50,848 bases of DNA from Candidatus Bathyarchaeota archaeon (GTDB taxonomy: Archaea; Thermoproteota; Bathyarchaeia; Bathyarchaeales; Bathycorpusculaceae), in contig JAMDCQ010000007.1 of NCBI GenBank assembly GCA_023488905.1, positions 1 through 50,848 on the forward strand, in the 5' to 3' direction. Shown piece by piece: positions 6,136-50,655 of the stretch (positions are counted from its first letter, which is position 1; every line of letters starts with the position of its first letter). A program made the position numbers and the translations under genes. Below the pieces are notes generated by a model. The model saw nothing but the letters and a program-made list of their open reading frames with translations, ran no database searches and was not told the DNA's origin.

Positions 6136-6366
6136 TCATTTTAGTTTTTTGAATATTTGGTAGCCTTCGATTTCTGTGAATTTTGTGAAGCCTGCTTCGG
6201 CTAATTCGCATATTTCTTTTAGTGTTGTTGGTGTTCCAAGCTGGACGGTTCTTGAAATGTATTCATCGGTTTTGAGGTTGATTAGGTGTGTGTAGATTGG
6301 GGGGTGTTCTGTTTTGCGTGTTTTTAAGTGGTGTTGCTTGCAGAAATCGCCACAACCAATCTGCAA
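6136..6366 (-). pseudogene. Truncated hypothetical gene with repeat-derived N-terminus
   Basis: The 3' part reads like a genuine small protein (TEHPPIYTHLINLKTDEYISR… to IEGYQIFKKLK). The first ten or so codons, starting from a TTG, fall inside the dispersed repeat at 6332-6460. The natural start therefore seems to have been replaced by the repeat, or the gene was truncated when the repeat arrived. It is the third minus-strand gene of the island. Function unknown; it may still be translated from an internal start. Confidence 0.5.
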
Positions 6367-6460
6367 TTTGATTCATAATCTGACTTTAAAGCAGGCGTTT
6401 CTGGCAAGTTTGTTGGTTGTTGTTGAAATAAGAGGGGTGAGCGGCATCTTCTAAGATTGA
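6332..6460 (+). repeat. Dispersed repeat family B, copy 1
   Basis: Aligns by eye with 25141-25285. Shared blocks are a GCTTGC-GAA-TCGCCACAACCA-TCTGCAA segment at the left, a GAAATAAGAGGGGT block near the right and a GCATCTTC-AAGA-TGA end. The middle part is diverged. It overlaps the start of the truncated gene at 6136-6366. Confidence 0.6.
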
Positions 6461-8784: not shown

Positions 8785-8892
8785 CGCCCATACCGAGACA
8801 GAAGCAGAAAACCAGTCTGAGCCCAAAAAGCAAAGCCACCCCGTTGTCGTCGTGTGGTGTGACGTAAACCGCCAACCCACATAAAGAGAGAA
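8785..8892 (-). repeat. Dispersed repeat family A, copy 1
   Basis: Read on the minus strand it carries the family core CTCTTTATGTGGGT…GGTTTACG-CACACCACACGAC, then a GGCTTTG-TTTTTGGG block and a TCTCGGTATGGGCG block matching copies at 31118 and 50396. The 3' hairpin part is not evident. It fills the gap between tRNA-Tyr and the flippase-like gene. A 111-codon open frame here (8634-8969, minus) is repeat sequence rather than a credible gene. Confidence 0.65.
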
Positions 8893-8970
8893 AAACCGGA
8901 AGAGCAAAACCGCCTTTTTTGAAAGCTTATCCACAATCCATTTAACCCCCAAAGCGAATTTCCTAACAAT

Positions 8971-10056
8971 ATGTCTGACTCAGAAATGCCAAAACCCGCA
9001 AGGCCTCAAAGTTCAGCGAAGCGTATCCTAAAGATCGCTGTTCAAGTTGTTGTGATGGTGGCGATTTTTGCGGCTCTGTTTTGGTATATTGGAGTTGACT
9101 CGCTCTACACTGCGCTTCTTAACATTAAAGTTGAGTACTTGGCGCTTGCTTTTCTGATGTACTTTGGGATCAACATATTTTTCACTATACGATTACGTCG
9201 GGTTCTTGCAAAGGGCGGCGTGAAAACAACTTTTGGCAAAACGTTGCTCGCCCAATTTGCAGGGATGCTAACCAGCGACGTTACCCCGGGACGCTCAGGA
9301 TACATCCTGACCCCAGTTTACCTCAAAGACCAAAACGTTCCCTCATCTAAGGCGCTCTCAAGCATCTTGGGAATCCAAACAGTGGAATTCCTAGTGAAAG
9401 TCTTAGGCGGTATTGGGGCTGCAATATTTCTCCTCCAAACTGTTCCAGCAAGCAACTGGCCCTCTGCAACAATCTTGGGCGTTAATGTGACCTTTTTCGT
9501 AATAGGTTTAGGTATCGCTCTGATGTTGACCGGTGCATTGCTGCTAGCAGCTGTTTCATGGTCTAAGCGGGCAATTTCAATCTTCGACCGCATAGCGAAC
9601 TCCCGTTATCTAAAAAGATTCACAGGAGGCATCATGGGTAAACTTGAGGACTACAAAGACAGCGGCCAAAAAACCCGCTCCGCTATCCCAGAAATCTTCC
9701 TTTTGACCATGGTGTGCTGGGTCCTCAAAGGGTTTGAATGGTACTTTCTCGGTTTAGCGTTGGGAATAACACAAATTCCCTTCATCGGTTACTTCCTGAT
9801 TCATCCCTTAGTTACTGCATTAGCGTTTGTTCCAATCACTCCCGCGGGTGCAGGTGTCCAAGAATTCGGCATAGTTGGCATATTTGCGCTTCTTGGTGTA
9901 GCTGATGGTCCTGCAGGCGCATTCGCTATAGTCGCTCGCGGTATGCTAATAATCGAGGACTTAATCGGTGTGCCGCAGGTTGTAAAGTCCACAAGCTTAA
10001 TCTTTTCACGCAAAAAACCGCAAGCGACCCCTCCAATGCCCTCAACCACGGCTTAA
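8971..10056 (+). CDS. Flippase-like / lysylphosphatidylglycerol synthase-like membrane protein
   Basis: 361 residues, polytopic, with about seven or eight hydrophobic segments after a short polar N-terminus. The pattern AQFAGMLTSDVTPGRSGYILTPVYL followed by a VEFLVKVLGG segment, and late in the protein HPLVTALAFVPITPAGAGVQEFGIVGIFALLGV, is diagnostic of the flippase-like family (TIGR00374, also called UPF0104). Members are thought to move lipid-linked substrates or to form the membrane part of lipid-modifying enzymes; the catalytic MprF domain is absent. The C-terminus is a cytoplasmic Pro/Thr-rich tail. It stands alone. Confidence 0.85.
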   Translation: MSDSEMPKPARPQSSAKRILKIAVQVVVMVAIFAALFWYIGVDSLYTALLNIKVEYLALAFLMYFGINIFFTIRLRRVLAKGGVKTTFGKTLLAQFAGMLTSDVTPGRSGYILTPVYLKDQNVPSSKALSSILGIQTVEFLVKVLGGIGAAIFLLQTVPASNWPSATILGVNVTFFVIGLGIALMLTGALLLAAVSWSKRAISIFDRIANSRYLKRFTGGIMGKLEDYKDSGQKTRSAIPEIFLLTMVCWVLKGFEWYFLGLALGITQIPFIGYFLIHPLVTALAFVPITPAGAGVQEFGIVGIFALLGVADGPAGAFAIVARGMLIIEDLIGVPQVVKSTSLIFSRKKPQATPPMPSTTA

Positions 10057-10329
10057 TCCGCCACTCAGCGATGGAATAGGGGTTCTTTGGCTACTTTGGG
10101 GAATCCGGGTTTAGGCCTATTTGGTTTGGGGGTTGTGGCGGTTGTTTGGCTGGGGGGGGTTCCGGTTTTTTGAGAGCTATTTGGTTTGCGTCGGGTGAGG
10201 TTTTGTTGATGGTTGATGTTGATTTTGGGTGTTGATTTGTAGTTTTAACTAGAAATACTTATTATGTAGCAAGACGTAATACGTAATACTTACGCCTTGC
10301 GCGTATGGATTGAACGAAGGAATCGACAG
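10057..10329. promoter_or_regulatory. G/T-rich spacer and operator-like repeats before the pilin genes
   Basis: The first 170 bp are strikingly G/T-rich on the plus strand, with five or more G runs of 3-8 bases and few C. From 10252 an AT-rich TATA-like stretch (10253-10266) precedes a tandem ACGTAAT-ACGTAAT (10274-10287), closed by TTACG at 10290-10294. This forms a CGTAA/TTACG inverted repeat just downstream of the presumed TATA box and before the ATG at 10330. Such a position would suit a repressor site; the binding protein is unknown. Confidence 0.45.
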
Positions 10330-10605
10330 ATGAAAAAAAGCCAAACCACACTGGAGTCTAAACCTAAAGCTAGGGCTAAGCCCAAAACCAACTCAGCCGA
10401 ACCCTACTTCTACATAGGTTTAGTGCTTAAGGGAACCGAAAAAGAGTACGTTAATCTTTTAAAGTACATCAATAACCGAAACGGCTCCCAAATAATCTAT
10501 CAATGTAAATCCCTAACATATCTACGAGTATCCCGAGAGGACACGCCCAAAATCAGGGAAGTCATAGCTTACCCTGACGAGTTAGCCTCTCAAGAGGCGA
10601 CGTAG
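10330..10605 (+). CDS. Conserved-looking small protein paired with pilin-like gene
   Basis: About 91 residues from the ATG at 10330, which has GAAGGA about ten bases upstream; a GTG/ATG reading further 5' from 10297 is less likely because it would cover the operator-like repeats. The N-terminus is Lys/Pro-rich and disordered-looking. The rest (PYFYIGLVLKGTEKEYVNLLKYINNR…IIYQCKSLTYLRVSRED) looks like a compact alpha/beta domain. Not recognised. It ends one base before the ATG of the pilin-like gene, so the two are surely co-transcribed and may act together. Confidence 0.65.
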   Translation: MKKSQTTLESKPKARAKPKTNSAEPYFYIGLVLKGTEKEYVNLLKYINNRNGSQIIYQCKSLTYLRVSREDTPKIREVIAYPDELASQEAT

Positions 10606-10606
10606 C

Positions 10607-11080
10607 ATGGGCCACTACACGCAGAGACGCTTGCTTTGGAACAAAAAAGCGCTGGGCGCCCCAGTCGGCAACCTCATTATCCTCATGGCAGCCGTCGTGC
10701 TCTCAACCACCGTCGTGCTCTTCGCAGTGAACCTGACTTCAAACCAGATTCAGAAAGAAAGCCTCTTCATAGCAGGCACCTCACTGGATACGGAAAAAGC
10801 GCAAATCACCATCGTCAACACCGGCCCAACCTCAATCCGCGTAAACCAAATAACCATCAAAGGAGACCGATTCTCCAACTACACCAGCAGCCCAGAAATC
10901 GGCACAGGCCTGGGTAAAGGCAACTCCACAACCCTAACCGTCACCTTAACGCCTGGCTTAATCACAGTCAACGACGTCGGCCGCCCAATCGCATTAGTCA
11001 TCACCACCACACAGGGTGCATACTTCACCGAAACGCTGGTCCAAGCCACAGCCGCGGTAACTCCGACATCGCCACCATAA
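10607..11080 (+). CDS. Archaeal type IV pilin-like protein
   Basis: 157 residues with a class III signal: a basic N-terminus (RRLLWNKKALG) followed directly by a hydrophobic helix (NLIILMAAVVLSTTVVLFAV), the form cleaved by prepilin peptidase in archaeal pilins and archaellins. The mature part is Thr/Ser/Asn-rich beta (TAQITIV-type strands, NTGPTSIRVNQITIKGD), as in archaeal pilin C-domains. No assembly ATPase or platform protein is next to it, so the secretion machinery must be encoded elsewhere. It could be an adhesive pilus or a surface pseudopilin. Confidence 0.75.
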   Translation: MGHYTQRRLLWNKKALGAPVGNLIILMAAVVLSTTVVLFAVNLTSNQIQKESLFIAGTSLDTEKAQITIVNTGPTSIRVNQITIKGDRFSNYTSSPEIGTGLGKGNSTTLTVTLTPGLITVNDVGRPIALVITTTQGAYFTETLVQATAAVTPTSPP

Positions 11081-11181
11081 AAATAAACGCGCGAAAAGCT
11101 CCTTTTTCCTTTCTTTCTTGGAATATTTTTCGTCTGGGACAGACCGCAGCATTTTGGTGCGTGTTGTCTGTCTTTAGCCCG

Positions 11182-11352
11182 AGCTCTTTATGCGGGTGTA
11201 GCGGCTTACGGCACACCACACGACAACTTGAGAAACGCGTTGAAATCCGCCACTGCATCGCTTCTCTTCGACCGTTTCGATGTAGCATACCCGTTTTCTT
11301 TCACAAGCTATACATGCTTCCATGTTGAAAACAACAGGATGTGGCTGTAGTG
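11182..11352 (+). repeat. Dispersed repeat family A, copy 2
   Basis: Begins with GAGCTCTTTATGCGGGTGTAG and the core TTACGGCACACCACACGAC. The middle is diverged, and it ends with the conserved hairpin ACATG-CTTC-CATGT (11312-11325) and AACAACAGGATGTGGCTGT. It lies between the pilin-like gene and a minus-strand small gene. The rest of 11081-11476 holds a pyrimidine-rich tract at about 11098-11125 that may end the pilin transcript, and nothing else recognisable. Confidence 0.65.
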
Positions 11353-25029: not shown

Positions 25030-25140
25030 AACGGATACACTTGATAGGTTGCCGCTGTATGTTAAGCGGTAGTTGAAATATAAGCTGTCCTCTAAAAACT
25101 GAGGCTAGAGCTTATGTGGCTTTATCAGTAGATCAAAAAA

Positions 25141-25285
25141 TGTCTGTTTTGTTTGTTCTGCTTGCGGAATTCGCCACAACCAGTCTGCAACGCAACACAC
25201 AATCCAGAGGCAAAATGCAGTCGTCTGCACAAGCGGCTGGAAGAAGATGAAATAAGAGGGGTCCCCTGCATCTTCCAAGAATGAT
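25141..25285 (+). repeat. Dispersed repeat family B, copy 3
   Basis: Matches 6332-6460 in the left block (GCTTGCGGAATTCGCCACAACC) and in the GAAATAAGAGGGGT…GCATCTTCCAAGAATGA right block. The right part can also fold on itself (GGAAGA-type arm at 25238-25244 against TCTTCC at 25271-25276). Confidence 0.6.
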
Positions 25286-25404
25286 TTTTGATCTACTATT
25301 ATATAAGGGAGGGGAGATAGCGGCAGAGAGGTGGCGTGGTCTTTGCCTGGTTGTTAAATGGCGTTTTGTGTTCTTTTGGCTTGTGAATTCTTCGGCAGTT
25401 TCAA

Positions 25405-25612
25405 CTTGGCGCCACATGCGCATCGAGCTTTTCTATGCATTCTTGTGGAGAAAAAAGCATATGCCGCACCGAAACAGACGCGCCAAACCGTTGCAAACCA
25501 AAAACGCAATCGCAGCCAGTTGCGGTCTTGTGGTGTGCCGTAAACCCCCACACCCACATAAACAAAATTTTAACCTACCGCTATATAGGGGGAATGGTCT
25601 TAGCAAAACAAC
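25405..25612 (-). repeat. Dispersed repeat family A, copy 3
   Basis: On the minus strand it starts with TTTTGCTAAGACCATTCCCCCTATA, the same beginning as the copies at 31118 and 50396. It then has TTTATGTGGGTGTGGGGGTTTACGGCACACCACAAGACCGCAACTGG split over the core, the TTTTTGGTTTGCAACG and GTTTCGGTGCGGCATATGC blocks, and TTTCTCCACA. Together with copy 3 of family B it fills most of the 600-bp gap 25030-25633; nothing else is recognised there. Confidence 0.7.
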
Positions 25613-25633: not shown

Positions 25634-27355
25634 TTATGCTTCGCCTTCGAGGCCTTTTGCGGATGCCTCTGCGTAGAGGTTCCCAAAGCGTTTGTAGATA
25701 TCTTTGGGTGAATAGATGGCAGAGTGGAAATGGAAAAAGTTACCCATGCGGTCAGTTTCTACGCCTATGCCGAGTACTATAACGTTCTTCTTGATTAAAG
25801 CGTCAACAGTTTCTTTTAGGGCAAGAGGCATGTTGGGATACCCATATGGCCAACCATCCGAAATCACCACCAGCACCCGTTGCTCCTCAAAACGTTTTGC
25901 CAGCATCTTTCCCGCAATCGTAATTGCATCAGGGATATAGGTTAACCCTTCGAAACGTAAACCTCCAATACGTGCCCGAACGCGCCTGGAATATGCTTCA
26001 GTGCTGTCTTTAAGCACGTAGAGTTTGTCGCTGAAGCCAAAGAATGTCCATGAAGCGGGGTCAATCATCAACTCACGAGCTGCTTCCCCGACTGAAATCG
26101 ATAAAGCCCTTCCAAACTCGCCCTTAACCTGCATGCTCCGGCTAACATCAAGCAGTAGCGACCAAGCAAAACTCGGCTTCAAGTACTCATCCAAATTAAA
26201 GACGTCTGTAGCAGGCTTATTCGCCGCCAAAGACTGAATAACGGCTGTCAAATCCAGTTGACCCATCTCCTGCCGGGGGTCTTCATCAAGATAGTTAAAG
26301 GCAGAACGCAAAATATCAAGCAGACGCCTACTAGTACCCTGCACCAAACTACGCGCGCGTAGATACTGAGTGTAGTCCTCTTCTGGGAAACTGATTTTTT
26401 TGAATCGCGTCCAACCTAAGTATGGCGAGAGTTTCTCTAGTATTTTTTCGTTGCGCTGCTTCTGGTACATTTCGGAGTTAAACGCCTGCAACGCCTCGGC
26501 TTCCTGCTCAGGACGCCAGAGCTGATCAAGGTTATCAACAGTAGGTACATCTGTACCCAGAGTCATTAGTGATTGAACAAATAAGCCCTCGAAATCATCT
26601 GCGGTCCCTTCAACATTGCTGTATATGCTACAACGACCCACCCCCTCTGTGTGCCGCAACGAAGGCACCTCCAAAAAGGGGCCAAACGGCTCAAGCGCAT
26701 CCATAATCACTTTGACCTTCTCATCAAATAGCTTGTTTACATCAGTGGGGTCGCCTGCAATCACCATCAGCAACGCCTCCTTAAGCGCACCCAACTCGGT
26801 CGCTAATTGGTCAACGACCTTCTGTTCATCAGGCGCCAAAGTGCCCTTCACTGAACCAACGGTGAGTTGAGTCAAAAGCGACGACATAAGCCGTGTAGAA
26901 ACCGTGAAGATGCGTTCGGACAGCTTTATCTTCTGATAAGCCAACGCGTTTGCGTATGCAACATCAAAAAAGCGGTCTGGATACCATGCACCAATGTATG
27001 CTACGATGTAGGCATCATTAACTAGACGCTTTGCGAACGATGTTAGAAGGGAATCCTTCTCCGAGGGGATGACTCTGTCTTTAGAAAATGGCGCCAATGT
27101 ATGCGTCGTCAAATGCATAACTGAGGCACGGAACAAGCGTCCGACTTTGGCTTTACCAGCGCTACTTCCCGGAAACTTGTGCCCCAAAAAAGAAACATTC
27201 CCATCATTAAGAAAACGAATCGTCGGAAGCTTAATTGTAAAACCATAAGGATCATCGAGTAGAATGGGCTGCTCAAGTGTTTCATCTTGCAGAATCTTCA
27301 CTTTGGTGTTATCTTTCTGTAGTGAAACTGCCCAAGCGTAATCGATGAAACCCAT
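25634..27355 (-). CDS. VWA-domain protein, partner of the MoxR ATPase
   Basis: 573 residues, cytosolic. The C-terminal third is a von Willebrand factor A domain with a MIDAS site: LLLDVSRSMQVKGE (D-x-S-x-S), later GLTYIPDAI (the Thr position) and VISDGWPYGYP (the Asp). The N-terminal two thirds are helical and unrecognised, of the type seen in CobT/NorD-like proteins. Such proteins act with MoxR AAA+ ATPases in metal insertion or complex remodelling. The MoxR gene lies 17 bp upstream on the same strand, supporting one operon. The client is not visible; chelatase genes are absent. Confidence 0.88.
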   Translation of the reverse strand: MGFIDYAWAVSLQKDNTKVKILQDETLEQPILLDDPYGFTIKLPTIRFLNDGNVSFLGHKFPGSSAGKAKVGRLFRASVMHLTTHTLAPFSKDRVIPSEKDSLLTSFAKRLVNDAYIVAYIGAWYPDRFFDVAYANALAYQKIKLSERIFTVSTRLMSSLLTQLTVGSVKGTLAPDEQKVVDQLATELGALKEALLMVIAGDPTDVNKLFDEKVKVIMDALEPFGPFLEVPSLRHTEGVGRCSIYSNVEGTADDFEGLFVQSLMTLGTDVPTVDNLDQLWRPEQEAEALQAFNSEMYQKQRNEKILEKLSPYLGWTRFKKISFPEEDYTQYLRARSLVQGTSRRLLDILRSAFNYLDEDPRQEMGQLDLTAVIQSLAANKPATDVFNLDEYLKPSFAWSLLLDVSRSMQVKGEFGRALSISVGEAARELMIDPASWTFFGFSDKLYVLKDSTEAYSRRVRARIGGLRFEGLTYIPDAITIAGKMLAKRFEEQRVLVVISDGWPYGYPNMPLALKETVDALIKKNVIVLGIGVETDRMGNFFHFHSAIYSPKDIYKRFGNLYAEASAKGLEGEA

Positions 27356-27372
27356 ATTTCAGCCTCTGCGGC

Positions 27373-28395
27373 TTATGATTTTACGAAGACGGCCTCAAGG
27401 ATTCTGCGTACATCTGCCTGCACTTCTGGGCTGTCGCTTGTTAAGCCGATGATTGTTTCTTCCGCTGCCTCCATCGGCGTCACGCCATCGAATACCAGTG
27501 TGGCCCAGTTGATGAGGTCGCCAAGTGAGGGGCCATAAGGAAGATCGCCTGCTTTGTATTGGCGACGTAACTCTGCGCCCGCTTGTATGATGCCGTAAGC
27601 GACTTCTTGGTTAACTTTGGTTCTTTTGCGAAGCATCTCCACTTCGTGCGGGGAAATCTTTTCGCCGACGCTTAAGAAGTCAAAGTTGATCCATACTGCC
27701 ATTCGTCTGCGCATGGCGGCGTTGAGTGGTTTGGTGCCGCCGAATTCAGCTGTGGCGGGGTTCATGCTGATGATCATGTAGCCGTATTTGTGGCGTTCGA
27801 TGACTTCGCTGTCTTTCTCGTTTAGAACAAGGTGACCTCGTGTGTCCAGCACGGGGTTGAGTCGAGTGGCAACGTCCTGTTTCATCATGTTGGCTTCGTC
27901 GAGGTACATGATGCCGCCTTTACGCAGCCACTGAGTGAGCAAGCCGTCGACCCAGTTCTCTTTGCCAAGACCGATGAATCTGCCAATTAAGTCGAAGCTG
28001 CTGGTGCTAAGTCCGCAGTTAACTTCCCAAATCGGTAACCCCGTAAGCTCAGCGACCAAATAGACGATGTGAGTTTTGCCTGTACCTGAAGGACCGATTA
28101 GGCTGCATTGTTTGAAGTAGTATAGTGCGCGTACGATGCGTTCGACGTAGTTTAGGCCGTGGTCAAGGTATTCGGGTGTGCCTTTGGGGATCATGTCGTC
28201 AAGGTGTGAAAAGCTGTAGTTGGGGTGCAAATCGAAGCGTTGGATGTTGTACTTGTAGTAGAGCGGTGAGGTGGACATCGGGCGTTCTTTGTCTAGGGAC
28301 ACGGTTACTTTGAATTTGTCTCTTTTTAGTGAGGAAACCTCCTGTATTCTGCTTGCCATCGCCTTTTCATGTAAGCCTTGATGTCCATAACTCAT
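27373..28395 (-). CDS. MoxR-type AAA+ ATPase
   Basis: 340 residues. Walker A GPSGTGKT at 101-108, Walker B GIMYLDEAN at 161-169, then the SMNPAT sensor-1 region and the arginine-rich AAMRRRMAVWINFDF segment. The C-terminal lid has the YGPSLGDLINW motif. Closest in style to the MoxR/CobS/GvpN group. First gene of the operon with the VWA protein. The pair is divergent from cheY across 196 bp and interrupts the chemotaxis locus. Confidence 0.92.
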   Translation of the reverse strand: MSYGHQGLHEKAMASRIQEVSSLKRDKFKVTVSLDKERPMSTSPLYYKYNIQRFDLHPNYSFSHLDDMIPKGTPEYLDHGLNYVERIVRALYYFKQCSLIGPSGTGKTHIVYLVAELTGLPIWEVNCGLSTSSFDLIGRFIGLGKENWVDGLLTQWLRKGGIMYLDEANMMKQDVATRLNPVLDTRGHLVLNEKDSEVIERHKYGYMIISMNPATAEFGGTKPLNAAMRRRMAVWINFDFLSVGEKISPHEVEMLRKRTKVNQEVAYGIIQAGAELRRQYKAGDLPYGPSLGDLINWATLVFDGVTPMEAAEETIIGLTSDSPEVQADVRRILEAVFVKS

Positions 28396-28547
28396 ACAGT
28401 GTTGCCTCTAAGACGACTACAGGTTGACAAATTTGATTATTAAGTCTTATCGTTTACTACTCAATACGTGAGCTCAACGCCTAAATATGCAAAACTTGGC
28501 CAAGATTGGCGTGTTGTTTTGAAATATGGCGTTTTGCTCCACAAGCC

Positions 28548-28557
28548 TTTTATATAT
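28548..28557 (+). promoter_or_regulatory. TATA box of the cheYDCR operon
   Basis: TTTATATATT lies 35 bp before the cheY ATG (28592), the usual archaeal spacing for a short leader. No second strong TATA box is seen between it and the minus-strand moxR. Confidence 0.6.
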
Positions 28558-28591
28558 TATCGCAAGAGTTACGATATAAAAGGCAACTGAT

Positions 28592-28960
28592 ATGGGAACA
28601 ATAATGATAGTTGACGACGCTTCGTTTATGCGGGCAGTGCTTAAGAAGATTGTTCTTTCGGCTGGTCATGAGGTTGTTGCTGAGGCGGGGAATGGTGATG
28701 ATGCTATTTCGCAGTTTCAGTCTGTGCATCCTGATTTGGTGTTGATGGATATTGTTATGCCTCCAGGTCCTAAGGCTAAGGATGGGATTGAGGCGTTGCG
28801 TCAGATTGTTGCTTGTGATCCTACTGCTAAGGTGGTTATGTGTAGTTCGATGGGTCAGCAGGCGTTGATTGCTGAGGCAATCAAGTCAGGCGCGAAGGAT
28901 TTCGTGATTAAACCGTTTCAACCACAGAAGGTCTTGGAAGTTCTTTCAAAGTACGCTTGA
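28592..28960 (+). CDS. cheY: Chemotaxis response regulator CheY
   Basis: 122 residues, single receiver domain. Acidic pair D8/D9, phospho-acceptor D53 (LVLMDIVMP), Ser-Ser at 85-86 for the switch position, K107 in FVIKPFQ. Between the MP after D53 and the usual DG(I/L) there is an insertion, PGPKAK, where most CheY proteins have one or two residues; this loop borders the phosphorylation site. First gene of cheY-cheD-cheC-cheR, all closely spaced. Its first half is markedly G/T-rich in codon choice compared with cheD. Confidence 0.95.
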   Translation: MGTIMIVDDASFMRAVLKKIVLSAGHEVVAEAGNGDDAISQFQSVHPDLVLMDIVMPPGPKAKDGIEALRQIVACDPTAKVVMCSSMGQQALIAEAIKSGAKDFVIKPFQPQKVLEVLSKYA

Positions 28961-28970
28961 GGAAACTATT

Positions 28971-29570
28971 GTGCTCTATCTCAGTGTAGGCAGCAATCTT
29001 AACGGAGCCTGTAAACCAATGTCAAAACGTGGTGCTTACCAACAGTTAGAGCCTCAAATAGTCATAGATGCTAACACAAACACACATCCGCAATTGGAAG
29101 AGGTTCGAGTGGACATGGCTGGAATGAAAGTGGACAGCAGACCTGTTGAGCTGTTAACAAGTGTTGGGTCATGCATCGGCATCTGCCTGTATGATCCAGC
29201 GCACAAATGTGGGGGGTTAGCTCACATCATGCTGCCACACTCCAGTCAAGGTCCACTTGAGCCTCTTCCATCAAAATACGCTGACACCGCCGTCCCCGCA
29301 CTGGCTGCTGGCATCAGAGGGATGACGGGCGTGGAGGCAAAGTTGTCAGCGAAAATTGCTGGAGGCGCAAACATGTTCGCCAACACCACCGCAAATGGAC
29401 TTGATATTGGTCAAAAAAACATCAAGGCAGTCCGTGAAACGCTTGCCTTGCACAAGATCAATTTGGCCGCGGAAGATGTAGGTGGATCGCATGGAAGGCG
29501 AATCAACTTCAATTTAGTCTCTGGCGTCATAACTGTACGGTTACATAATGGAGAGACAAAAAAGCTATGA
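28971..29570 (+). CDS. cheD: Chemoreceptor glutamine deamidase CheD
   Basis: Up to 199 residues. Deamidates Gln to Glu in receptors and interacts with CheC. Catalytic Cys68 in TSVGSCIGICLYDP and His85 in GGLAHIMLPHS are intact, followed by ADTAVPAL and KIAGGANMF. The GTG at 28971 is preceded by GAGGA; the ATG at 29019 would give a more typical N-terminus 16 residues shorter. It overlaps cheC by four bases (ATGA), showing translational coupling. Confidence 0.94.
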   Translation: MLYLSVGSNLNGACKPMSKRGAYQQLEPQIVIDANTNTHPQLEEVRVDMAGMKVDSRPVELLTSVGSCIGICLYDPAHKCGGLAHIMLPHSSQGPLEPLPSKYADTAVPALAAGIRGMTGVEAKLSAKIAGGANMFANTTANGLDIGQKNIKAVRETLALHKINLAAEDVGGSHGRRINFNLVSGVITVRLHNGETKKL

Positions 29571-30214
29571 GTACACAAATAGACGTAAACGCAACCAACA
29601 AGACGACTCAGGATGATGAAATCAACTTGGGTATCCTGCGTGAACTGGGAAGCATAGGTGCAGGACACGCTGCTACATCACTTTCAGACATCCTACAACA
29701 ATCCATCACCATAGATGTCCCCAAAATCCACAATGTAAAACCGTACCTCATTCCACAATTCTACAACCTTCATGACGTACCAACAACAGGGATCCTATTA
29801 CAGTTAAACGAGAAATACGGCTGTGACATCCTGCTTACGTTTGAGTACATCGAAGCTCGCAAAATCGCTGCAATGATGAATATGGTATCATCGGTTGACG
29901 AATTAGATCAAACAATGGAGACTTCTGCCTTGCAAGAACTCGCCAACATCTTGATTGGGTCATTTTTGACTTCGATTTCAGATTTCGTCGGTGTCGGATT
30001 GATGCCGACAACGCCGCAAATGGTTACGGACACGTTTGACGCGATAATTGACAACTTCCTCGTCAAGCAGTCGATGGTCAGCGACAATGCACTCATCTTT
30101 GAAACCCGCTTCAAACGCAACGGAGAAGACGCCAAGTCGATATTGATGATTTTCCCAACTCAAGAACTCAAAGACCTCTTGGTTGAGAGATCCAAATCGA
30201 TGATGGGCGTCTAA
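29567..30214 (+). CDS. cheC: CheY-P phosphatase CheC with one degenerate site
   Basis: 215 residues. CheC proteins carry two E-x-x-N phosphatase motifs. The second is intact (E124 and N127 in ALQELANILIGSFLTSISD). In the first, ILRELGSIGAGHAATSLS, E26 is present but the Asn position is Ser29. By family knowledge the Asn helps catalysis, so the first site is probably weakened or inactive while CheD binding could remain. Located between cheD and cheR in the operon. Confidence 0.93.
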   Translation: MSTQIDVNATNKTTQDDEINLGILRELGSIGAGHAATSLSDILQQSITIDVPKIHNVKPYLIPQFYNLHDVPTTGILLQLNEKYGCDILLTFEYIEARKIAAMMNMVSSVDELDQTMETSALQELANILIGSFLTSISDFVGVGLMPTTPQMVTDTFDAIIDNFLVKQSMVSDNALIFETRFKRNGEDAKSILMIFPTQELKDLLVERSKSMMGV

Positions 30215-30232
30215 AACGCCCGCAGTTGGGGT

Positions 30233-31090
30233 TTGACTGTGTTGGAACAAACGCAAAAACCAGAAGCCCTCCAGAACTATCTGGAAGAAAGCGCTTACAA
30301 TAAAGTCAAACGCATGATCACAGAGTCTGCGGGGCTGAACACTTCGGGTTACCGCGATGAATACCTCAAACGCCGCTTCGAAATCCGTCTTCGTGCAACA
30401 GGTACCAACACATACGCCCGCTACATTTTATACCTCAAAAAACACCCTGAAGAATTCACCAACCTACTAAACGACTTAACAATCAACTACACGACATTCT
30501 TCCGCGACGGCGACGTCTACCAACACATCGAAAAGAAGTTGCTGCCCAAGTTTCTGTTCTCGAAGAATCCAATTAAGATTTGGAGTGCCGGTTGCGCTTC
30601 AGGAGAAGAGCCATATTCGCTCTCAATTCTGGTGCATAAAGTGTTTGGGTCATCGTTAACTCGGAATCCTGTGACGATTTTTGCATCTGACATAGACAAA
30701 GATGCTTTATCGAAAGCACAGAACGGGCTTTACAGTGCGCGTCAACTTGCCACGATGGATCAGCGAACCATCGAGAAATATTTTACTAAAGAAAGCGAAA
30801 ACTACCGCGTAAAAGATTTCTTAAAAGACATCGTTCACTTCGAACAATTTGACCTAATGAAAACGTCGCTTCACGTAAACTTAGATCTAATTCTGTGTCG
30901 AAATGTCATGATCTATTTTAGTAAAGAAGGGCAACAACACATACACATGAACTTCTACCGCGCTATTCGCGACGGAGGCTTTTTCATAACTGGCAAGAGC
31001 GAAATCCTCTCAGGTGAACCCGCACAAGTATTCACGGCACTTGACTACGTCACAAGAGTCTACCAAAAACCAGCCAAACCACCACTCTGA
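30233..31090 (+). CDS. cheR: Chemoreceptor methyltransferase CheR
   Basis: 285 residues. Transfers methyl groups from S-adenosylmethionine to receptor glutamates. N-terminal helical domain with YLKRRFEIRLRATG, then the SAM-binding domain: IWSAGCASGEEPYSLSIL, ASDIDKDALSKAQNGLY, LDLILCRNVMIYFSKEGQ and FFITGKSEIL. Start at TTG 30233, or GTG 30239, which is better spaced from GGGG upstream. Last gene of the operon; a family A repeat follows. Confidence 0.96.
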   Translation: MTVLEQTQKPEALQNYLEESAYNKVKRMITESAGLNTSGYRDEYLKRRFEIRLRATGTNTYARYILYLKKHPEEFTNLLNDLTINYTTFFRDGDVYQHIEKKLLPKFLFSKNPIKIWSAGCASGEEPYSLSILVHKVFGSSLTRNPVTIFASDIDKDALSKAQNGLYSARQLATMDQRTIEKYFTKESENYRVKDFLKDIVHFEQFDLMKTSLHVNLDLILCRNVMIYFSKEGQQHIHMNFYRAIRDGGFFITGKSEILSGEPAQVFTALDYVTRVYQKPAKPPL

Positions 31091-31117
31091 AAACCAGCAA
31101 AGGTGCACGCCAGCGTC

Positions 31118-31385
31118 TTGCTGCTCGGCCCATAGACTCGTATCCCCCATAAAAAGCGCTGATTTCCGTTTTGTCTCTTTATGTGGGTGTGGGGGTTTAC
31201 GGCACACCACAAGACCGCAACTGGAGGCGACTGCATTTTGGGGCAGCAACGTTTCTCTGCGTCTGTTACGGTGTGGCATATGCGATTTCCACCACACGCT
31301 CAACATACTTCTATGTTGAAACCGTCAGGATGTGGATGTGAATCCATGTATCGATTGGTTTTTTCTCCACAAGAACCAACAACAC
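31118..31385 (+). repeat. Dispersed repeat family A, copy 4
   Basis: One of the two most complete copies. Order of blocks: TTGCTGCTCGGCCCATAGAC; a CCCCCATAAAAAG block; CTCTTTATGTGGGTGTGG; TTTACGGCACACCACAAGAC; GGGGCAGCAACG; TTACGGTGTGGCATATGCGA; CACACGC; an 8-bp hairpin (stems 31300-31307 and 31312-31319, loop CTTC); CAGGATGTGGATGTG; and a TTGGTTTTTTCTCCACAAGAA tail. The remainder of 31091-31549 is AT-rich near the Lrp gene end and holds nothing else seen. Confidence 0.75.
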
Positions 31386-40015: not shown

Positions 40016-40094
40016 GCTAGTCACGCAACGTCTCAGGGCTGACCTCCCCTCCTTATTTAACAGCAGATCAAAATCTTGTGTTGTGTTTGCTTTT

Positions 40095-40138
40095 CTATAG
40101 TTGTTGTTGCCGTGATCCCTCCTTGTTTCAACAACAAC
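40095..40138. repeat. GTTGTTGTTG hairpin, second copy
   Basis: CTATA followed by a 10-bp perfect inverted repeat: arms 40100-40109 and 40129-40138, loop 19 bases. The same head and arms as at 8584-8621. Located between convergent ends of glgP and the TIR-like pseudogene, so it could act as a bidirectional terminator. Confidence 0.55.
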
Positions 40139-40199
40139 CAATGGCGGTAACGGCGACGAAAATCAGTGCGCGAGACTTGGCGTAAATTAACCCATTATT

Positions 40200-50395: not shown

Positions 50396-50655
50396 GTTTG
50401 TTGCTCTGCCATAGACCCCTATCTCCTATAAAAAGAGAAAATCGACTTCGCTCTTTATGTGGGTGTTTTGGTTTACGGCACACCACACGACGGCAGTCGG
50501 GGGCGGCTGTGTTTTGGGTTTGCAACGATTCGGCGCGCCCGTTTCGGTGTGGGCTGTGCGATTTTCTCCACACGCAATACATGGCTCCATGTTGAAGGCA
50601 ACTGCATGTGGGTGTGGGATCATGTGTCGTTTGGTTTTTTCTTCACAAGAATCGT
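50396..50655 (+). repeat. Dispersed repeat family A, copy 5
   Basis: Same block order as 31118-31385: TTGTTGCTCTGCCATAGAC, CTCCTATAAAAAG, CTCTTTATGTGGGTG, TTTACGGCACACCACACGAC, GGGTTTGCAACGATTCGGCG, TTTCGGTGTGGGCTGTGCGA, CCACACGC. Then hairpin ACATG-GCTC-CATGT (50579-50592), CATGTGGGTGTGG and the TTGGTTTTTTCTTCACAAGAA tail. It follows sufB. The last 190 bases of the window show no further feature. Confidence 0.75.

What the first reader, a model, noticed from the sequence alone, without database searches (positions are those of the whole stretch)
31118..31385. Five-copy dispersed intergenic repeat family (A) with a conserved hairpin
Copies at 8785-8892 (-), 11182-11352 (+), 25405-25612 (-), 31118-31385 (+) and 50396-50655 (+) share an ordered series of blocks around a TTTACGGCACACCACACGAC-type core. 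All lie in gene gaps, in both orientations. In three copies the 3' part holds a small hairpin: ACATG-CTTC-CATGT (11312-11325), ACATG-GCTC-CATGT (50579-50592) and an 8-bp version at 31300-31319. In the last, a G-C pair has become A-T with both sides changed, which hints at selection for structure. Five copies in 51 kb imply a very abundant element. It could be a MITE-like mobile element, a structured non-coding RNA or a 3'-end processing unit.
Basis: seen in the sequence. Interest (0 to 1): 0.72.

Follow-up and report, generated by a model that had tools for sequence, protein, structure and literature searches.

The report
Mobile intergenic repeat, not structured RNA
A short DNA repeat is scattered between the genes of a probable archaeon in more than forty copies; nearly half of those examined are wrapped in the ends of a jumping gene, so it is best read as a small passenger transposon that tends to lie at genome rearrangement points, and not as a folded RNA.

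Summary
In detail: all five copies are real, related and intergenic, and 43 copies were aligned from this 1.79-Mb genome. The conserved unit is a ~200-bp core, TTTATGTGG...CCACAAGA, also found in eight other genomes of the genus. The RNA reading fails: among 92 copies no column pair covaries, the 'compensated' hairpin pair is at chance, there is no kept ORF and no Rfam match. Mobility explains part of the family. In 17 of 40 classified copies of this genome the core lies between inverted ends (CAGTAGATCAAAA) shared with a 1.1-kb insertion sequence that encodes an ISH3-like transposase. Elements with these ends carry 4-bp TTAA/TTAT duplications (17 of 42 against 7.2 by chance), but for family A alone the signal is weak (4 of 19 against 2.0); one A copy is missing from the same place in the closest relative. 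The window's five copies lack both ends, bar one degenerate end; the four testable ones sit at synteny breaks. The core seems older than the ends; how it spreads without them is unsolved.

The parts
31118..31385 (+). Copy of family A given in the finding: C module with TATA-like CATAAAAAG (about 31118-31157), then core; no IS-type terminal inverted repeats
31178..31374 (+). Conserved core TTTATGTGG...CCACAAGA of this copy
31300..31319 (+). 8-bp palindrome TCAACATA-CTTC-TATGTTGA; conserved as sequence, no covariation
8788..8901 (-). Truncated, divergent copy of family A; at a synteny break against G011
11184..11348 (+). Divergent copy of family A; at a synteny break against G011
25441..25580 (-). 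Copy of family A cut after the second CCACAAGA; degenerate 5' IS-type end at 25569-25580; at a synteny break against G011
50396..50655 (+). Copy of family A, long form (the 3' extension runs on past 50655); near the contig end, so a break could not be tested
25123..25301 (.). Second MITE type (family B) with the same IS-type ends and a TTAT duplication, beside the A copy at 25405

Best explanation
[quoted passage not shown] In this genome the core, with short spacers, came to lie between the ends of an ISH3-like insertion sequence; its transposase would recognise those ends (CAGTAGATCAAAA) in trans, insert the unit at TTAA/TTAT sites (often the TATA-like end of another repeat, the C module) and duplicate 4 bp. 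Shown: shared ends, an intact transposase gene in the genome, 4-bp duplications for elements with these ends as a group, absence of one A copy from the orthologous place in G011, one main clade of TIR-bounded copies. Inferred: that this transposase moves A, and that A makes the same duplication. The five window copies are TIR-less relatives of the same core, probably older or recombined copies, since the four testable ones lie at synteny breaks. How TIR-less cores spread in sister species is not explained.
For: TIR pattern (up to 2 mismatches) 94 hits against 6 for the reversed pattern, many in inverted pairs at about 280 bp (A), 165-190 bp (B) and 1.1 kb. The 1.1-kb element encodes a 347-aa protein matching NCBIfam ISH3 transposase at E 4e-51 (173.8 bits, below the cut-off of 225) and Pfam DDE_Tnp_1 at E 1e-11. 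IS and A share the ends (17-31 bp including flank); other hits between them are short and low-complexity. Both ends within 3 mismatches: 17 of 40 G000 copies; control windows 6 of 297 (5') and 21 of 285 (3'). Exact 4-bp duplication in 17 of 42 elements with these ends (A, B, IS and one chance pair), shuffled mean 7.2, 0 of 2000 shuffles as high. A copy at C5:33136 absent from G011 C22. TIR label clusters on the tree: 9 changes, minimum 11 in 1000 shuffles within G000; 14 of 16 TIR-bounded G000 tips in one clade of 16, support 0.82. Only 2 places with DNA matches in the closest relative G011.
Against: The duplication signal comes mainly from B and IS elements (13 of 23 against 5.8); A alone has 4 of 19 against 2.0 (534 of 5000 shuffles as high), or 4 of 16 against 1.5 in G000 only (184 of 5000). 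The empty site is ragged by about 20 bp, not base-exact. 16 of 40 G000 copies, all 12 of G029 and 11 of 12 of G024 lack the ends. None of the five window copies has both ends. 39 TIR-less copies show no duplication. The transposase was not found in G007 or G009, which hold TIR-bounded elements. The core is conserved at scattered internal positions (12 invariant columns among 92 copies), which a plain passenger would not need.
Confidence: 0.6

Rival explanations
1. The core is itself an older mobile element with its own ends (TTTATGTGG / CCACAAGA) and an unknown helper; the IS ends are a later acquisition seen mainly in G000 and G007.
For: Copies without the ends dominate in G029 (12 of 12), G024 (11 of 12), G006 (9 of 12) and G013 (7 of 8); copies cluster by genome (18 changes on the tree, shuffled mean 51.7), so species amplified their own; two short copies end right after the second CCACAAGA; by eye, homology starts at the T-rich TTTATG end in G029 and G024.
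Against: No duplication or inverted-end signal beside 39 TIR-less copies; no helper was found; three pairs of copies are at orthologous places in two species (L130/L100, L133/L108, L057/L097), so part of the spread is old.
Confidence: 0.32
2. The core is a structured non-coding RNA or RNA regulatory element kept in many copies.
For: Conserved inverted pentamers TGTGG/CCACA and the ACATG-N4-CATGT palindrome; one closing pair (columns 118-134) has 10 A-U beside 61 G-C; a TATA-like box within 70 nt before the core in 16 of 40 G000 copies (loose pattern, no control run); core present in nine genomes.
Against: No significant covariation; pairing of the chosen helices equals shuffles (90.1% against 90.1%; 27 doubly changed cells against 27.4); consensus fold only -5.8 kcal/mol; no relevant Rfam match; both orientations to genes. 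Nearly invariant pentamers cannot be tested by covariation, so a weak form stays open.
Confidence: 0.1
3. Recombination platform: dispersed A copies recombine with each other, which both spreads core fragments and rearranges the chromosome. It can hold together with the best explanation and would scramble target duplications.
For: 11 of 12 A copies examined lie at synteny breaks against G011, against 19 of 80 A-free gaps (p 1e-5) and 13 of 30 A-free gaps of 150 bp or more (p 0.005). Two junctions adjacent in G011 (C22:122439/122523 and C22:141187/141257) are split in G000 and both halves have an A copy 0.01-0.9 kb away with matching orientation.
Against: A third such junction (C5:32169/32469) gives opposed orientations; several breaks have no A copy; the stretches were chosen because they hold A copies and main blocks were picked by hand; both genomes are drafts and repeats can cause false joins.
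Confidence: 0.35
4. Decayed protein-coding remnant (a membrane segment read in one frame).
For: One frame reads as a hydrophobic peptide in many copies; stops are fewer than in column shuffles.
Against: The shortage of stops is seen in all six frames, so it marks no frame; stops occur in every frame; substitutions are not conservative in any frame beyond column shuffles; no codon-position pattern.
Confidence: 0.03

Closest known systems
Archaeal MITEs SMN1 (320 bp) and SM3A (164 bp) of Sulfolobus islandicus (PMC3718332, passages seen)
   Same: Short, no ORF, terminal inverted repeats, multicopy, depends on a transposase in trans
   Different: Those depend on ISC1733 and ISC1058 transposases per that paper; here the presumed partner is an ISH3-like IS, the interior shows no IS-derived stretch, and the same core also occurs without the ends
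ISH3 insertion-sequence family (NCBIfam NF033541)
   Same: Transposase match E 4e-51 over residues 41-313; strong archaeal bias of the family stated in PMC9208149 (passages seen)
   Different: Score below the curated cut-off (173.8 of 225); the family's own ends and duplication lengths were not compared here
Modular bacterial intergenic repeats such as ERIC, BOX and RUP (named in the review PMC10969869, passages seen)
   Same: Intergenic, dispersed, mosaic of modules
   Different: The likeness is recalled; no sequence comparison was made

Membership tests
MITE (TIR-bounded A subset) | Short and without transposase gene | tested here: met
   254-305 bp in the 16 TIR-bounded A elements of G000; no ORF kept in the family
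MITE (TIR-bounded A subset) | Terminal inverted repeats | tested here: met
   17 of 40 G000 copies with both ends; control windows 6 of 297 and 21 of 285
MITE (TIR-bounded A subset) | Target site duplication | tested here: inconclusive
   All elements with these ends: 17 of 42, shuffled mean 7.2. A alone: 4 of 19 against 2.0; G000 only 4 of 16 against 1.5
MITE (TIR-bounded A subset) | Autonomous partner with the same ends | tested here: met
   G000:C22, 1113 bp between the CAG...CTG ends, 347-aa transposase
MITE (TIR-bounded A subset) | Empty site at an orthologous place | tested here: met
   One copy, C5:33136, against G011 C22; edges ragged by about 20 bp
MITE (TIR-bounded A subset) | Mobilised by the partner transposase | not testable with these tools
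   needs an assay
MITE (the five window copies) | Terminal inverted repeats | tested here: not met
   none of five has both ends; 25405 has one degenerate 5' end
ISH3 transposase | Score above the curated NCBIfam cut-off | tested here: not met
   173.8 bits against 225; called ISH3-like here
Structured RNA family | Compensatory base changes above chance | tested here: not met
Known Rfam family | Match at gathering score | tested here: not met
   only a tRNA in the window; one irrelevant hit at E 2.5 in four loci searched to E 5

The most novel reading that the evidence does not exclude
The core is an old, self-sufficient mobile or protein-binding DNA element (three repeated TGTGG...CCACA units) with an unknown helper, later hijacked by ISH3-type ends, and its copies act as recombination points that reshuffle gene order in this genus.
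Probability: 0.24. Interest if true: 0.62.

Novelty: new variant of a known kind. Interest (0 to 1): 0.42.

Why it matters
It shows one conserved intergenic core occurring both naked and between IS ends, so the capture step in MITE birth could be dated within one genus (common in some species, two places found in the closest relative). The link with synteny breaks makes repeat-driven rearrangement in this group testable with finished genomes. It also removes a false lead: the hairpin is not evidence of an RNA.

Tried and rejected
Structured RNA: covariation test, helix counts, Rfam at two thresholds, rejected in its strong form. Coding sequence: six-frame stops, codon periodicity, substitution scores, rejected. 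3'-end unit: gene orientation around 97 hits in the six best-sampled genomes shows no consistent bias (co-directional to opposed, where an upstream ORF was called: G000 26:15, G007 3:5, G029 6:2, G024 9:2, G006 2:7, G013 2:5). A 2-bp duplication, my first guess, lost to 4 bp (10 of 42 against 8.5 expected). Literature: in four searches the titles listed showed no paper on this repeat; three papers were seen as passages. The searches cover only the open library and those terms.

Rows dropped: of 99 core copies listed, 92 were aligned; I left out L018 (near-duplicate of L017) and L025, L035, L103, L135, L059 and L111 (short, truncated or divergent). Relative genomes were scored for at most 12 candidates each, so their copy numbers are lower bounds. 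The list of 42 TIR-bounded elements includes one plain chance pair (L001); without it the non-A elements give 13 of 22 against 6.0. In the synteny count I kept main blocks and left out weaker, paralogue-like hits by eye. Window 27101-29559 was in no query against G011. Loci L041, L052, L061-L068, L144, L145 and L148-L150 were fetched but used for no count.

Full report
What is there. The window is one contig (C4) of a 1.79-Mb draft genome. The five copies are related over about 110-260 bp. Searching the whole genome with 31118-31385 gives 40 matches at E <= 1.2e-23 and 72-87% identity (100% for the query itself); adding the two weaker window copies and a partial one, 43 were aligned. In a scan of 61 genomes (the own one included) 11 had a DNA match: the own genome, nine others of the genus and, marginally (E 7.5e-4), one of another genus; in one of the nine, G009, the matches listed cover the inverted end and its flank, not the core. 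A profile search of the fetched loci finds the core in this genome (41 hits) and in eight others of the genus (63 hits).

Anatomy. The conserved unit runs from TTTATGTGG to CCACAAGA (window 31178-31374). It holds three similar units, each TGTGG, 15-43 alignment columns, CCACA (columns 22-51, 114-138 and 175-227 of alignment A2), and a palindrome around ACATG-N4-CATGT. Two short copies, L031 and window 25405, stop just after the second CCACAAGA. What lies outside the core differs: (i) IS-type inverted ends, (ii) a C module ending in a TATA-like box, sometimes with a longer 3' extension, (iii) sequence without visible conservation, as in most copies of G024 and G029 on the 5' side.

The RNA reading. 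Alignment A2 has 92 copies with mean column identity 66%. A tree-aware covariation test with 100 simulated null alignments, written here in the style of R-scape but not R-scape itself, has no significant pair; the best has E 1.9 and pairs in 35% of copies. Four named helices pair in 90.1% of cells, the same as in shuffles; one closing pair (118-134) has 10 A-U beside 61 G-C, the only hint the other way. The pentamers hardly vary and so cannot be tested this way. No ORF is kept and entropy shows no codon period (0.87, 0.82, 0.82); stops are fewer than in column shuffles, but in all six frames. Rfam has nothing relevant.

The mobility reading. Many copies are bounded by CAGTAGATCAAAA...TTTTGATCTACTG. 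The pattern has 94 hits in the genome against 6 for its reversed form, many in inverted pairs with spacings of about 280 bp (A), 165-190 bp (a second type, B, one of them at window 25123-25301) and 1.1 kb. The last encodes a 347-aa DDE transposase whose best NCBIfam model is ISH3 (E 4e-51, but below the cut-off). A fragment lies at a contig end. IS, A and B share the ends and flank; other hits between them are short and low-complexity. With up to three mismatches per end, 17 of 40 classified G000 copies have both ends, 7 one, 16 none; G007 has 3 of 12 with both, G024 1 of 12, G029 0 of 12. Control windows give 6 of 297 and 21 of 285, so a single 3' end is weak evidence. Of 42 elements with such ends, one of them plainly a chance pair, 17 have an exact 4-bp duplication, TTAA, TTAT or ATAA, against 7.2 expected and none of 2000 shuffles as high. 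Split by type, B and IS carry the signal (13 of 23 against 5.8) and A is weak: 4 of 19 against 2.0, or 4 of 16 against 1.5 in this genome. The A copy at C5:33136, which has a TTAA pair, is missing from the orthologous place in G011, where the C module already stands; the edges of the gap are ragged by about 20 bp. On a tree of the 92 cores the TIR label changes 9 times against a minimum of 11 in 1000 shuffles, and 14 of the 16 TIR-bounded G000 tips fall in one clade of 16 (support 0.82). This fits one main capture followed by amplification.

What this does not explain. The window's five copies lack the ends, apart from a degenerate 5' end in the 25405 copy. TIR-less copies in four sister genomes show no duplication or inverted-end signal (39 copies), yet copies cluster by genome (18 changes against 51.7), so they multiplied somehow. 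Three pairs of copies lie at orthologous places in two species, with element identities (0.66, 0.68, 0.75) near those of other cross-species pairs (means 0.69, 0.64, 0.71), so part of the family is old. The transposase search of 32 genus genomes matched three: G000 (whole), G013 (part, 57% identity) and G031 (34%, one stop); none in G007 or G009, although both have elements with these ends.

Synteny. Against G011, the best-matching relative in two searches (81-88% where aligned), I examined the window from 7200 on, apart from 27101-29559, and three further ~20-kb stretches, all holding A copies. Of 12 A copies, 11 lie where neighbouring blocks go to different places and one is the insertion above; the copy at 50396 could not be judged. 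Of 80 A-free intergenic gaps 19 overlap a break (p 1e-5); with gaps of 150 bp or more it is 13 of 30 (p 0.005). Two junctions of G011 are split in G000 with an A copy near both halves in matching orientation; a third has opposed orientations. Segments 8916-11083 and 25634-31091 of the window are each bounded by an inverted pair of A copies and match places in G011 away from their window neighbours. Draft assemblies and the choice of stretches limit this; the other four window copies differ by 16-27% from the query copy over the aligned part, which makes misassembly through them unlikely but not impossible. Recombination between copies would also explain why A shows few matching duplications; that is inference.

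Verdict. A real, abundant repeat family; its best explanation is a MITE born by capture of an older intergenic core between ISH3-like ends. The hairpin argument fails. The naked core, its constraint and its place at breaks are the open part.

Noticed in passing
window 25123-25301, 6335-6460, 40058-40141: Second repeat family (B), about 165-190 bp, with the same CAGTAGATC ends; the copy at 25123 has a TTAT duplication, that at 6335 is related (71% over 129 bp), that at 40058 shows one end only.
   Followed up: partly
window 31118-31157, 40021-40057; L011 1749-1854; L069 1320-1357: C module: a repeat with CGCGAC(C/G)TCTC or GTTGCTCTGCC followed by CCCCTCCCTTAT and a TATA-like box. It occurs in G000 and at several places in G011, and is a frequent landing site of the MITEs: of 74 end flanks 16 match the first and 7 the second motif. 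Whether it is a promoter is untested.
   Followed up: partly
L059 (G014): Two A-core hits on one strand, about 750 bp apart.
   Followed up: no
L142 8331-8454 and 16477-16834 (G000 C5): Apparent reciprocal exchange between two G011 places (C22:148133/148302 and C11:34807/34901); one product holds an A copy, the other none.
   Followed up: no
G000 C5:45044-45261 and C5:48462-48679: Inverted pair of A copies 3.2 kb apart with the same score and identity to the query and the same core sequence as printed (L018, L017): recent, or an assembly effect.
   Followed up: no
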